Positions 46,998-51,872 of a stretch of 64,000 nucleotides of DNA are shown here, one piece after another. Source of the stretch: Psychroflexus torquis ATCC 700755 (GTDB lineage Bacteria > Bacteroidota > Bacteroidia > Flavobacteriales > Flavobacteriaceae); assembly GCF_000153485.2 (NCBI RefSeq), contig NC_018721.1:1736001-1800000 (forward strand), in the 5' to 3' direction. The stretch's first letter is position 1; every line of letters starts with the position of its first letter. Below the pieces are notes generated by a model that did no database searches, was not told where the DNA came from, and saw only the letters and a program-made list of their open reading frames with translations. Both the position numbers and the translations under genes were made by a program.

Positions 46998-47459
46998 TTA
47001 ATCATACCATTCAAATAAATATTTTGCATCATATTCGACTTCAAATTTTTTGAGAAGTGACAAATATTCATCTCTGAACGTTTGCTTTTTATGATGTTCA
47101 GGCTGATTCAAAATATATTTTACCACCCTGTCGATATGGGATTTGGAATAGGTAAAAGCCCCATAACCATTTTGCCAATAAAATTTACCAGAGATGAATT
47201 TTTTCTCATTAAGCCATTTAGAAGAGCCTGATTTTACCTGTTCCATAAGCTTAGATGGAGAAATCGCTGGATGCATCCCTACGAAGATGTGTGTATGGTC
47301 AGGATTGCAATAGATCGCATAGGTTTTGCATTTTTGGTTGGTAATTATGCCGCACATCACCTTTTCCAATTCGTCTCTGAAGGATTCTTTGATTAGGTTT
47401 TGTCGTCTTTTTACAGAAAAAACAAATTGGACGTATAATTGTGTGTATGTATTTGCCAT
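46998..47459 (-). CDS. REP-associated tyrosine transposase (RAYT, IS200-like)
   Basis: 153 residues from ATG 47459 (MANTYTQLYVQFVFSVKRR); a TTG three codons earlier is less likely. HUH motif in CNPDHTHIFVGMHP near residue 57, the helix with the probable catalytic Tyr in GAFTYSKSHIDRVVKYI, and PEHHKKQTFRDEYLSLL at the end, as in Y1-type transposases of the RAYT group. These cut and join single-stranded DNA at REP palindromes. REP sequences crowd both sides within 300 bp, as expected for a domesticated RAYT with its own REPs. Confidence 0.9.
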   Translation of the reverse strand: MANTYTQLYVQFVFSVKRRQNLIKESFRDELEKVMCGIITNQKCKTYAIYCNPDHTHIFVGMHPAISPSKLMEQVKSGSSKWLNEKKFISGKFYWQNGYGAFTYSKSHIDRVVKYILNQPEHHKKQTFRDEYLSLLKKFEVEYDAKYLFEWYD

Positions 47460-47465
47460 CGGTAC

Positions 47466-47655
47466 CAAGATTACAGGGCTAATGCCCCTAGGTTACTAAG
47501 ATTACAGGGCTGACGCCCCTAGGTTAATGAGATATCAGGGCTACGCCCCTTACCAAGATTACAGGGCTAACGCCCCCTACTCATGATGCCACTCATCAGC
47601 CCGACGATCGCAGGGCTACGCCCCTAAGTTAACGAGATATTAGGGCTACGCCCCT
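47466..47655. repeat. REP cluster upstream of the tyrosine transposase gene
   Basis: Six direct copies of AGGGCTAATGCCCC, AGGGCTGACGCCCC, AGGGCTACGCCCC and variants at about 47475, 47506, 47537, 47572, 47612 and 47642, separated by taggttactaagattac-like spacers. None is inverted here, unlike the other side. 47656-47754 shows no other feature. Confidence 0.8.
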
Positions 47656-49696: not shown

Positions 49697-50853
49697 ACAG
49701 TTTCAAGTTTTGAGATTCTCTCTTTACAAATGCTAAGTTCCTCCTCAGAAACACATAATGAAAAGCGGAGATAATTAGACCCATTAGATCCAAATACATC
49801 ACCGGGGGTTACAAATACATTTCTTTTGTATAGGAGCTCATCTGCCAGTTCTTTTGCAGATTGAGAAGAATTCACTTTGCCCCACACAAAAAGTCCAACT
49901 GCAGATTTATCAAAACTCAGGTTTAACGTTTCACACATCTCCCAAAGGATAGCCCTGCGTTTTTTGTAAACAGTATTCTGAGCATCAAACCAGTCGTTTT
50001 TTAGCTCCAAAGCTTTGGTCGCTGCCTTTTGAATAGGAAAAAACATCCCACTATCCATATTGCTCTTCACCTTTAATACGGCTGAAATAAATTCAGAATG
50101 ACCCACTAAAAACCCAACTCTGAATCCTGCTAAATTGTAAGACTTACTGAGCGAGTTTAATTCCAAACAGACCTCTTTGGCTCCTTCCAGTTGAAAAATA
50201 GAGAATTTATCATCGGTGAGGACCATGCTGTAGGGATTGTCATTGACCAACAAGATTTTATTAGCTTTTGCAAAATGAATCAGCTCTTGTAGTTTTACTC
50301 TATCTGCTGCTTGACCTGTGGGCATATTTGGATAGTTGATCCACATCAACTTCACCTTGGCTAGGTCTAATTTTTGAAGCGCTTCAAGATCTGGATGCCA
50401 CGCATTTCCTTCTGTTAAATCATACGAGATAAGTTCAGCATTCAAAAGCTTAGTCGCTGCTTGATAAGTGGGATATCCTGGATTAGGGACTAAAACCTGA
50501 TCTCCTTCGTTTAAAAAAGCCATTGAAATTAAAGAAATTCCTTCTTTAGACCCCATCAGCGGAAGCACCTCGTTTTCTTTATCAATTTGGACCGCATACT
50601 GATTTCCATAAAAACCACACATCGCTTGTCTCAATTCATCTAAACCTTTATAGGCTTGATATTGATAGGCCCCATGTTGTGTTGTCGCCTTCACCAATTC
50701 GTCAACAACCTCTTGAGGGGGCGCTAAATCTGGACTTCCAATTCCTAAATTGATGATCGGTTTTCCTGCTTTTTTAAGTTGAGCAACTTCTCTCAGCTTT
50801 TTGCTGAAATAGTACTCTTCTGTCTTCTGGAGTCGGTTGGATACTGAAATCAT
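49693..50853 (-). CDS. PLP-dependent aminotransferase, aromatic/aspartate type
   Basis: 386 residues, class I/II fold. Substrate motif NLGIGSPDLAPP (35-46), MGSKEGISLI, NPGYPTYQAA, VNDNPYSMVL with the PLP-contacting Asp and Tyr, the Schiff-base Lys in ELNSLSKSYNLAGFRVGF, and C-terminal NYLRFSLCV. Lying between pheA and tyrA, it probably transaminates phenylpyruvate and 4-hydroxyphenylpyruvate to phenylalanine and tyrosine; LL-diaminopimelate aminotransferase-like sequence means the exact substrate remains inference. It overlaps both neighbours by 4 bp (ATGA). Confidence 0.9.
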   Translation of the reverse strand: MISVSNRLQKTEEYYFSKKLREVAQLKKAGKPIINLGIGSPDLAPPQEVVDELVKATTQHGAYQYQAYKGLDELRQAMCGFYGNQYAVQIDKENEVLPLMGSKEGISLISMAFLNEGDQVLVPNPGYPTYQAATKLLNAELISYDLTEGNAWHPDLEALQKLDLAKVKLMWINYPNMPTGQAADRVKLQELIHFAKANKILLVNDNPYSMVLTDDKFSIFQLEGAKEVCLELNSLSKSYNLAGFRVGFLVGHSEFISAVLKVKSNMDSGMFFPIQKAATKALELKNDWFDAQNTVYKKRRAILWEMCETLNLSFDKSAVGLFVWGKVNSSQSAKELADELLYKRNVFVTPGDVFGSNGSNYLRFSLCVSEEELSICKERISKLETV

Positions 50854-51668
50854 GACTTTCCACTTTTATATTGACCTACACAGGTCGGATTGATACTAAG
50901 GTTTGATATGGCTTTAAAAGCGTCTTGAAAATGTTCTAGACTTGTAAATGCAACGTCCACAATAAAGGCATACTTCCATACTTCCTCAGGAATGGGGATA
51001 CTTTGGATCTTCGTTAAGTTTAATCCATGATCTGCCATGACATTAAGGACGTTTGCTAAGCTTCCCGATTCGTGGGCTATTTCAAATTTTAGAGTGGCTT
51101 TGTTCACTTCTTTAATTGAGTTCCCTAGTTTTTCGATAACGACAAAACGGGTTTCGTTAGCGCTATAGTTTTGGACATCTTCCACAATCACTTTTAAATT
51201 ATAAAGTTCTGCAGTCCCTTTTGGCACTAAGGCTCCGACACCAAACAGGCGTTGCTCTGCAAGCTGCTGAGCGGGGAGCGCTGTGTCTACATCTTCAACA
51301 AGATGGATATGGCTATGGTTTCCAAAAAAATGGCTACACTGGTGCAATGCCATTTGGTGAGACCTCACTTCTTTTAGGTCTTCTAATTTCTGTCCTGTCA
51401 GAGCCACTAAATTGTGACTTATGTTTAGATAATGCTCTGCAGTCACTTGAAGATCATGGTCCAAAATAAGGCGGTAATTGGGAAGGATACTCCCTGCTAT
51501 AGAATTCTCAATAGCCATCACTCCTTTTTCACATTCATCACTTATGATAGCCTGAACGAGTTTTTGGAATGTCATACATTCTAAAGCCTCGACATCGGTT
51601 TCTCCAAAAAGCTCTGTAAGGGCTTTATAGTGATTAGATCCTTTTATTCCTTGTATTGCTATTTTCAA
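50850..51668 (-). CDS. pheA: Prephenate dehydratase
   Basis: 272 residues. It decarboxylates and dehydrates prephenate to phenylpyruvate. The N-terminal half has periplasmic-binding-protein-like lobes: IQGIKGSNHYKAL, GVMAIENSIAGSI, ISHNLVAL, and NETRFVVIEK with the conserved T-R-F. The C-terminal ACT domain (ATLKFEIAHESGSLANVLNVMADHGLNLTKIQSIPIPEEVWKYAFIVDV) senses phenylalanine. First gene of the operon; a terminator ends 9 bp upstream of its start codon and a Phe/Tyr-rich leader peptide lies before that, so transcription of pheA and the genes after it is probably controlled by attenuation. Confidence 0.95.
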   Translation of the reverse strand: MKIAIQGIKGSNHYKALTELFGETDVEALECMTFQKLVQAIISDECEKGVMAIENSIAGSILPNYRLILDHDLQVTAEHYLNISHNLVALTGQKLEDLKEVRSHQMALHQCSHFFGNHSHIHLVEDVDTALPAQQLAEQRLFGVGALVPKGTAELYNLKVIVEDVQNYSANETRFVVIEKLGNSIKEVNKATLKFEIAHESGSLANVLNVMADHGLNLTKIQSIPIPEEVWKYAFIVDVAFTSLEHFQDAFKAISNLSINPTCVGQYKSGKS

Positions 51669-51677
51669 TTCTATAAA

Positions 51678-51707
51678 TTAAAAAAGCCTCGTAAAAAACG
51701 AGGCTTT
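51678..51707 (-). terminator. Attenuator terminator in front of pheA
   Basis: On the minus strand AAAGCCTCG (51707-51699) and CGAGGCTTT (51691-51683) form a 9-bp stem with a 7-base loop, followed by a T-run (51685-51678). It lies between the leader peptide stop codon (51736) and the pheA start (51668), so it can stop the operon transcript. A segment of the leader, ACGGGGTT (51745-51738), can pair with AA(G)CCTCGT of its first arm with one bulge and one G-U pair, an antiterminator. Confidence 0.8.
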
Positions 51708-51735
51708 GTATATTTGATAATGAATTTATTTCATA

Positions 51736-51798
51736 TCAACCCCGTTTCGCTAGACTAGCAAAATAAAAGTTGAAATAAATATAAAAACGAGTTGTCAT
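51736..51798 (-). CDS. Phe/Tyr-rich attenuation leader peptide of the aromatic amino acid operon
   Basis: A 20-codon frame, ATG 51798 to TGA 51736, contains the run FYIYFNFYF at codons 5-13: four Phe, three Tyr and one each of Ile and Asn in nine codons. It is followed 29 bp downstream by a Rho-independent terminator and then pheA, the exact layout of ribosome-mediated attenuators. Its last codons (AAA CGG GGT TGA) hold ACGGGGTT, able to pair with the first terminator arm. A ribosome stalled at the aromatic codons would leave this free and let transcription go on; a ribosome reaching the stop codon would cover it and let the terminator form. Too short for ordinary gene prediction. Mechanism is inference from established attenuation logic. 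Confidence 0.85.
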   Translation of the reverse strand: MTTRFYIYFNFYFASLAKRG

Positions 51799-51872
51799 TT
51801 GTATTGTAATATGGGACTAAATTAAAATTTATTTTGAATAAAATCCTATTAACCTAAATAAAATTCTAAATA

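What the first reader, a model, noticed from the sequence alone, without database searches (positions are those of the whole stretch)
51678..51798. Complete Phe/Tyr attenuator in front of the aromatic amino acid operon of a Bacteroidetes bacterium
Seen: a 20-codon frame with FYIYFNFYF at codons 5-13, a Rho-independent terminator 29 bp after its stop, and pheA 9 bp after that. The frame's last bases, ACGGGGTT (51745-51738), can pair with the first terminator arm (AA-G-CCTCGT) with one bulged G and one G-U pair. This gives a simple switch: stalling at aromatic codons frees the segment and blocks the terminator; reaching the stop hides it. Known: such leaders control pheA in Proteobacteria. Inference: this one controls all four overlapping genes and reads both Phe and Tyr, fitting an operon that makes both. 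It is a one-switch design, without the separate 1:2 pause hairpin of the classic model.
Basis: partly seen in the sequence, partly recalled or inferred. Interest (0 to 1): 0.85.

Follow-up and report, generated by a model that had tools for sequence, protein, structure and literature searches.

The report
Phe/Tyr leader attenuator before pheA
A tiny reading frame packed with phenylalanine and tyrosine codons, followed by a switchable transcription stop signal, very probably lets this bacterium turn on its Phe/Tyr-making genes when those amino acids run short; nearly all examined members of its family carry the same switch, and it is a classic attenuator, not a simplified one.

Summary
Window 51798-51736 (-) encodes MTTRFYIYFNFYFASLAKRG*, followed by an intrinsic terminator and pheA-aminotransferase-tyrA-DAHPS/chorismate mutase. 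None of 1000 shuffles reaches its score. An aromatic leader plus terminator precedes pheA in 146 of 150 family genomes examined and in many examined genomes of other families of the class. The terminator's 5' arm covaries with both its 3' arm and the end of the leader ORF; the latter pair ranks first of the column pairs tested. In a folding model a ribosome midway through the aromatic run frees the antiterminator in 155 of 156 loci; at the stop codon it is down to 2 or fewer pairs in 142. So this is most likely a ribosome-mediated Phe/Tyr attenuator. Prior art: a 2021 F. psychrophilum study reported a conserved structured element before pheA and leader-peptide clues before amino acid operons. 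New here: anatomy, covariation, breadth, a Trp codon in 94 of 156 leaders. Not shown: translation, termination, response to amino acids.

The parts
51817..51824 (-). putative Bacteroidetes -7 promoter box TAATTTAG, its first base 26 nt before the leader ATG
   Evidence: TAnnTTHG within 70 nt upstream of the leader ATG in 150 of 156 loci against 66 of 833 background windows; TAnnTTTG is the sigma-A -7 consensus quoted in PMC9723704 (passage)
51736..51798 (-). leader ORF MTTRFYIYFNFYFASLAKRG*
   Evidence: conserved in relatives
51760..51786 (-). sensor codons 5-13 (FYIYFNFYF: 4 Phe, 3 Tyr)
51736..51773 (-). 1:2 hairpin: 51773-51756 pairs with 51752-51736, hiding the antiterminator arm; a weaker outer extension 51785-51775 with 51734-51725
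   Evidence: folds; synonymous-codon control; pair counts
51739..51748 (-). segment 2, 5' arm of the antiterminator (GAAACGGGGT)
   Evidence: covariation with the terminator arm
51715..51738 (-). inner stem of the antiterminator in Psychroflexus (TGATATGAA / TTCATTATCA)
51695..51704 (-). segment 3, 3' arm of the antiterminator, overlapping the terminator 5' arm
51680..51707 (-). intrinsic terminator: arms 51707-51698 and 51692-51683, then T run
   Evidence: 97.3% of cells paired in alignment A2
50850..51668 (-). pheA, prephenate dehydratase with ACT domain, TTG start
   Evidence: PF00800, PF01842
49693..50853 (-). class I/II aminotransferase
   Evidence: PF00155
48827..49696 (-). tyrA, prephenate dehydrogenase
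   Evidence: PF02153, PF20463
47755..48837 (-). DAHP synthase fused to chorismate mutase
   Evidence: PF00793, PF01817

Best explanation
A ribosome-mediated transcription attenuator. RNA polymerase starts a short way before the leader ATG and a ribosome follows it. If Phe-tRNA or Tyr-tRNA is short, the ribosome stalls in codons 5-13 and opens the 1:2 hairpin; segment 2 (51748-51739) then pairs with segment 3 (51704-51695) as an antiterminator and the four genes are transcribed. If charged tRNAs are plentiful, the ribosome reaches the stop codon and covers segment 2, so the terminator forms and transcription ends before pheA. If no ribosome loads, the 1:2 hairpin hides segment 2 and the terminator also forms. 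Shown by computation: the frame, the alternative helices, their conservation, and a switch point just after the last aromatic codon. Inferred: translation of the leader, real termination, and the response to Phe and Tyr.
For: Leader plus terminator upstream of pheA in 146 of 150 family genomes examined and in 11 of 11 named Psychroflexus loci; 156 of 160 real regions score 6 or more, 0 of 480 shuffles do. Of the column pairs tested in the 156-row alignment (columns over 60% filled, at least 4 apart) the antiterminator pair 51741-51701 ranks first (154 of 156 paired: AT 74, GC 62, GT 18); the same 51701 pairs with 51689 in the terminator in 156 of 156. Native antiterminator duplex -10.8 kcal/mol on average, swapped between species -8.1, shuffled -4.9. 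In the folding model the antiterminator forms (5 or more pairs) in 155 of 156 at the middle aromatic codon and in 154 at the last; at the stop it is down to 2 or fewer pairs in 142. The switch point lies 0-3 codons after the last aromatic codon in 134 of the 155 loci that have one. Clade-wise leader folds lie far below column shuffles (-31.2 v -14.9; -17.7 v -0.9; -19.3 v -2.9). Promoter box in 150 of 156. The operon content fits and is intact in 11 of 11 named Psychroflexus loci. The same genome has a WWW leader before a chorismate-binding gene that passes Rfam Bacteroid-trp.
Against: No expression data. Full-length minimum-energy folds show the terminator at every ribosome position, so the switch needs a kinetic argument. 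Without a ribosome the 1:2 hairpin (-18.0) and the antiterminator state (-17.9) are almost equal in energy. In the swap test the native arm is in the best tenth of partners in only 52 of 156 loci, median rank 27%. On alignment A2 only 76.2% of antiterminator cells pair, because the register shifts between clades, and the number of pairs with two-sided changes does not exceed shuffles (3 v 3.2), though 4 of 500 shuffles reach the covariation score. Within clades the 1:2 pair counts are weak evidence: two-sided changes are few and slid versions reach similar numbers; 88% of synonymous swaps keep a 1:2 pairing of 8 or more bases, against 145 of 156 native leaders. Four loci keep 5 or more antiterminator pairs with the ribosome at the stop. 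The window's own ATG has C, not A, at -3.
Confidence: 0.92

Rival explanations
1. One-switch attenuator: ribosome at the stop hides segment 2, stalling frees it, and there is no 1:2 hairpin.
For: The 2:3 and 3:4 helices alone reproduce the switch in the folding model; compensatory changes in the 1:2 hairpin are few within clades.
Against: Each of three clades has a strong predicted 1:2 hairpin inside the ORF; native leaders fold more stably than the mean of their own synonymous swaps in 145 of 156.
Confidence: 0.05
2. The hairpin before pheA acts on translation (coupling, or hiding the pheA start), not on transcription termination.
For: In the window the terminator hairpin ends 14 nt before the TTG of pheA.
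Against: The distance from terminator end to the aligned start of pheA varies from 9 to 346 nt, median 26.5, so the hairpin is often far from the gene start.
Confidence: 0.03
3. The short ORF makes a peptide that works in trans, and the terminator is an ordinary partial stop.
For: Some residues outside Phe/Tyr are conserved within clades; a trans-acting leader peptide is reported elsewhere (PMC7298713, start of abstract in a search listing).
Against: The peptide C-terminus differs between clades, lies over the antiterminator arm, and the RNA helices covary.
Confidence: 0.03

Closest known systems
Rfam RF01859 Phe_leader (proteobacterial pheA leader)
   Same: Leader ORF in a long 1:2 hairpin followed by a terminator; full-length model match at window 51801-51677.
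   Different: 33.6 bits against a gathering score of 55; three relatives' pheA leaders searched with it (L016, L055, L214) gave no match at E up to 1; Tyr as well as Phe codons; an operon with tyrA and DAHP synthase. That the family is proteobacterial is recalled.
Rfam RF01692 Bacteroid-trp
   Same: Leader RNA of the same phylum (PMC2864571, table seen); present in the same genome (60.3 bits).
   Different: Trp codons, before a chorismate-binding gene; does not match the pheA leader.
F. psychrophilum structured 5' element upstream of pheA (PMC9723704)
   Same: Same gene, same family, said to be present in other genera; leader-peptide attenuation suggested for amino acid operons.

Membership tests
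ribosome-mediated (leader peptide) transcription attenuator | short ORF rich in codons of the operon's product | tested here: met
ribosome-mediated (leader peptide) transcription attenuator | intrinsic terminator between leader and first gene | tested here: met
   sequence and covariation; activity not tested
ribosome-mediated (leader peptide) transcription attenuator | antiterminator exclusive with the terminator, conserved by covariation | tested here: met
   weaker on alignment A2
ribosome-mediated (leader peptide) transcription attenuator | 1:2 hairpin covering the antiterminator arm | tested here: met
   predicted in three clades; pair counts within clades weak
ribosome-mediated (leader peptide) transcription attenuator | leader translated, termination responds to amino acid supply | not testable with these tools
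   needs ribosome profiling, term-seq, reporters
Rfam RF01859 Phe_leader | score at or above the gathering threshold (55 bits) | tested here: not met
   33.6 bits; E 4.4e-4 for 301 nt, 0.024 for 16 kb; nothing at gathering in the window
Rfam RF01692 Bacteroid-trp | match to the family model at this site | tested here: not met
   not among 13 matches at E up to 1

The most novel reading that the evidence does not exclude
An old attenuator of the class that reads all three aromatic amino acids: most family leaders also carry a Trp codon inside the Phe/Tyr run, fitting an operon that holds DAHP synthase. It would mean that transcription and translation are coupled in a phylum whose mRNAs lack Shine-Dalgarno sites, and that a leader without Trp, as in this Psychroflexus, has lost one input.
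Probability: 0.35. Interest if true: 0.65.

Novelty: new member of a known kind. Interest (0 to 1): 0.45.

Why it matters
It gives Bacteroidota a counterpart of the textbook pheA attenuator, found in 146 of 150 family genomes examined and in several other families of the order and class, while no Rfam family reaches its gathering score at the site. It offers a natural assay for ribosome-polymerase coupling in bacteria that start translation without Shine-Dalgarno sites: 0 of 156 leaders has one of the four motifs tested, while A is enriched at -3 (77%) and -6 (61%), in line with the Kozak-like A-3 reported for F. johnsoniae (PMC6847099, abstract).

Tried and rejected
Rfam at gathering threshold: nothing in the window. 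A covariance model of alignment A2 (33 rows) kept only the terminator helix as consensus structure, because 1:2 and 2:3 shift in register between clades; in the own genome it reported only this place at E up to 0.001, but only 150 of 7037 first-look candidates were scored. A single family-wide structure was therefore dropped for clade-wise ones; the 49 loci outside clades P, A and B got no clade structure.

Trp as a third signal: W is in 94 of 156 leaders and is 2.7% of residues against 1.0-1.2% in other short ORFs. In the context Y[FI]x[NSQ][GSR][FS] the x is W, Y or F in 28 of 28; a second context gave 57 of 63 aromatic, but its pattern admitted only W, F, Y, N, L, R and A, so it is biased. 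Asn and Thr are also frequent in leaders and the Trp codon partly pairs in the clade B hairpin, so this stays a hypothesis.

Other operons of this genome: no leader followed by a terminator was seen before ilvD, a homoserine dehydrogenase gene (L262) or two other chorismate-binding genes (L258, L260); the start of thrA was not in the stretch held (L261).

Script misses: L184, L200, L220, L223 and L227 show a Phe/Tyr ORF when read without the strict terminator rule (20 misses were re-read, not all). L176 was first read at the wrong place because its contig ends early; re-read, its 209 upstream bases hold a leader and terminator.

Full report
WHAT IS THERE. On the minus strand, 51798-51736 encodes MTTRFYIYFNFYFASLAKRG*. 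A 10-bp terminator hairpin follows (51707-51698 with 51692-51683) with a T run, and pheA starts at TTG 51668. Downstream genes overlap: prephenate dehydratase with ACT domain, class I/II aminotransferase, prephenate dehydrogenase, and DAHP synthase fused to chorismate mutase. The window lies in a single-contig genome of 4,321,832 bases. From the genome size I would guess P. torquis, which is recall, not a result.

IS IT CHANCE? The region's best Phe/Tyr score (F or Y in the richest 10 codons of a short ORF followed by a terminator) is 7. In 1000 dinucleotide shuffles the best was 5, once.

CONSERVATION IN THE FAMILY. PheA was found in 178 of 199 family genomes. I examined up to 650 nt upstream in the 150 whose places were listed (30 loci, 120 regions); the other 28 matches were not listed and not examined. 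A leader with terminator was found in 146 of 150. The four misses are L033, L105, L111 (only 137 nt available) and L140 (382 nt). All 11 named Psychroflexus loci have it. L013 is from the same genome as L006 and is left out below, giving 156 leaders from 160 regions; 0 of 480 shuffles of those regions reached 6, while 156 of 160 real ones did. A further 15 family loci all have it, three of them from genomes already counted. The operon is pheA-aminotransferase-tyrA-DAHPS/CM in 11 of 11 named Psychroflexus loci. L033, which lacks the leader, also lacks the aminotransferase and tyrA beside pheA; but L186-L188 of another family have both genes and no leader was found.

BEYOND THE FAMILY. I examined 24 of 53 same-order genomes with a PheA match, 23 of 24 same-class and 33 of 127 same-phylum ones. 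By script, leaders were found in 8 of 24, 17 of 23 and 4 of 33 (group counts). Some are near-copies: L172, L175 and L178 have the same peptide, as do L195 and L196. Re-reading script misses adds L176, L184 and L200 (order) and L220, L223 and L227 (class), giving 11 of 24 and 20 of 23. No leader was found in 8 loci of family f5, whose PheA is far diverged, nor in 3 of the 600-kb genomes of family f16. Twenty-four of 29 outer leaders found by script show the same switch in the folding model.

THE HELICES. In an alignment of 156 leaders, the strongest covarying pair among columns over 60% filled and at least 4 apart joins 51741 (end of the leader ORF) to 51701 (terminator 5' arm): 154 of 156 pair, as AT 74, GC 62, GT 18. 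The same 51701 pairs with 51689 in the terminator in 156 of 156 (CG 63, TA 49, TG 44). One nucleotide that covaries with two partners is what alternative structures predict. Duplex energies agree: native -10.8, swapped between species -8.1, shuffled -4.9 kcal/mol; but the native arm is in the best tenth of partners in only 52 of 156 (median rank 27%), since many species share arm sequences. Several other top-ranked pairs pair poorly and probably reflect codon or clade effects. On the tool's alignment A2 the antiterminator has 76.2% paired cells (slid versions 23-61%); 1 of 500 shuffles reaches that and 4 of 500 the covariation score, but there is no excess of pairs with two-sided changes (3 v 3.2) or of pair types. 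The terminator has 97.3%, and no shuffle reaches its paired fraction or covariation score.

THE 1:2 HAIRPIN. Clade-wise consensus folding of the leader up to the terminator gives -31.2 (30 column shuffles: -14.9, sd 2.8) for 10 Psychroflexus, -17.7 (-0.9, sd 1.0) for 41 loci of clade A and -19.3 (-2.9, sd 2.1) for 56 of clade B. In each, Phe/Tyr codons pair with the end of the ORF. In the window 51773-51756 pairs with 51752-51736. Native leaders fold more stably than the mean of ten synonymous swaps in 145 of 156 and are the lowest of 11 in 54; yet 88% of swaps also keep a 1:2 pairing of 8 or more bases, so part of it follows from the peptide itself. Pair counts within clades: 97.0, 88.5 and 90.1% of cells paired (slid versions 43-65%); letter shuffles average 96.1, 85.2 and 89.5%, and the best shuffle exceeds the Psychroflexus value. 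Pairs with two-sided changes are 1, 10 and 7 against shuffle means 0.8, 6.2 and 4.1, and some slid versions reach as many. So the hairpin is strongly predicted and conserved, but compensatory proof is weak. Rfam's Phe_leader aligns end to end with 51801-51677 at 33.6 bits against a threshold of 55; the pheA leaders in L016, L055 and L214 gave no Rfam match at E up to 1.

THE SWITCH. Assuming that a ribosome protects the RNA to 15 nt from the first base of its P-site codon, I folded the free RNA before the terminator's 3' arm exists. In the window the antiterminator forms with the P site at any codon from 1 to 14 and vanishes from codon 15 on, just past the last Phe at codon 13. Across 156 loci it forms in 155 at the first and at the middle aromatic codon and in 154 at the last; at the stop it is down to 2 or fewer pairs in 142 and at 5 or more in 4. 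Among the 155 loci with a switch point, it lies 0-3 codons after the last aromatic codon of the run in 134. Limits: the footprint is an assumption, full-length folds favour the terminator at every position, and with no ribosome the 1:2 hairpin (-18.0) and the antiterminator (-17.9) are nearly equal, so order of synthesis must decide.

EXPRESSION SIGNALS. A TAnnTTHG box lies within 70 nt upstream of the leader ATG in 150 of 156 against 66 of 833 background windows. No leader has one of four Shine-Dalgarno-like motifs; A is enriched at -3 (0.77) and -6 (0.61) against 0.34 background, although the window itself has C at -3.

THE SAME GENOME. A chorismate-binding gene (L259) is preceded by MLKTNNKSWWWSLLRQTS and a terminator, matching Rfam Bacteroid-trp at 60.3 bits (gathering 49). 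hisG (L257) is preceded by a frame that I read by eye as MKNYNLHHYLSNTLNAVGM and a terminator-like hairpin that the script did not score. Leader-peptide attenuation is thus probably a habit of this genome.

WHAT IS KNOWN. PMC9723704 (passages and section 19 read) reports for F. psychrophilum structured 5' regions, one upstream of pheA present in other Flavobacteriaceae, 'strong clues' for leader-peptide attenuation upstream of amino acid operons, and no Rfam hits for the new elements. [quoted passage not shown] PMC7366714 (passage) mentions leader-like small ORFs in B. thetaiotaomicron. PMC4833913 (passages) cites a 2010 comparative study of attenuation (Lopatovskaya et al.) that I did not read. 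Seven searches listed no paper that I recognised as describing the pheA leader of Bacteroidota in detail; some listings were cut (10 of 3,329; 15 of 18), most subscription journals are not held, and supplements could not be read.

VERDICT. Real, well conserved, and very probably a classic ribosome-mediated attenuator of the Phe/Tyr operon; a member of a known kind with partial prior notice. The 'one-switch' claim should be dropped.

Noticed in passing
L259:744-858 (G000:C1 about 2743144-2743258), upstream of a chorismate-binding gene: Leader MLKTNNKSWWWSLLRQTS plus terminator in the same genome; passes Rfam Bacteroid-trp (60.3 bits, gathering 49).
   Followed up: partly
L257, upstream of hisG (G000:C1 about 4116600-4116750): Short frame with two His codons, MKNYNLHHYLSNTLNAVGM (read by eye), followed by a hairpin and T run: probable His attenuator.
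   Followed up: partly
L189, L194, L212, L214 (upstream of pheA in other classes of the phylum): Four examined genomes outside the class have PheA 39-41% identical to the window's and a Phe/Tyr leader; the other 29 examined there have lower PheA identity and no leader by script. The operon may have moved with its attenuator.
   Followed up: no
L201-L203 and L204-L211: No leader found before pheA in 3 loci of 600-kb genomes (f16) and 8 loci of family f5 with a diverged PheA: loss or replacement of the control.
   Followed up: no
94 of 156 family leaders (not the window): A Trp codon, mostly inside the Phe/Tyr run; at one site only W, Y or F occurs, 28 of 28.
   Followed up: partly
window 46998-47468 (-): IS200-like transposase (Y1_Tnp) downstream of the operon, same strand.
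   Followed up: no
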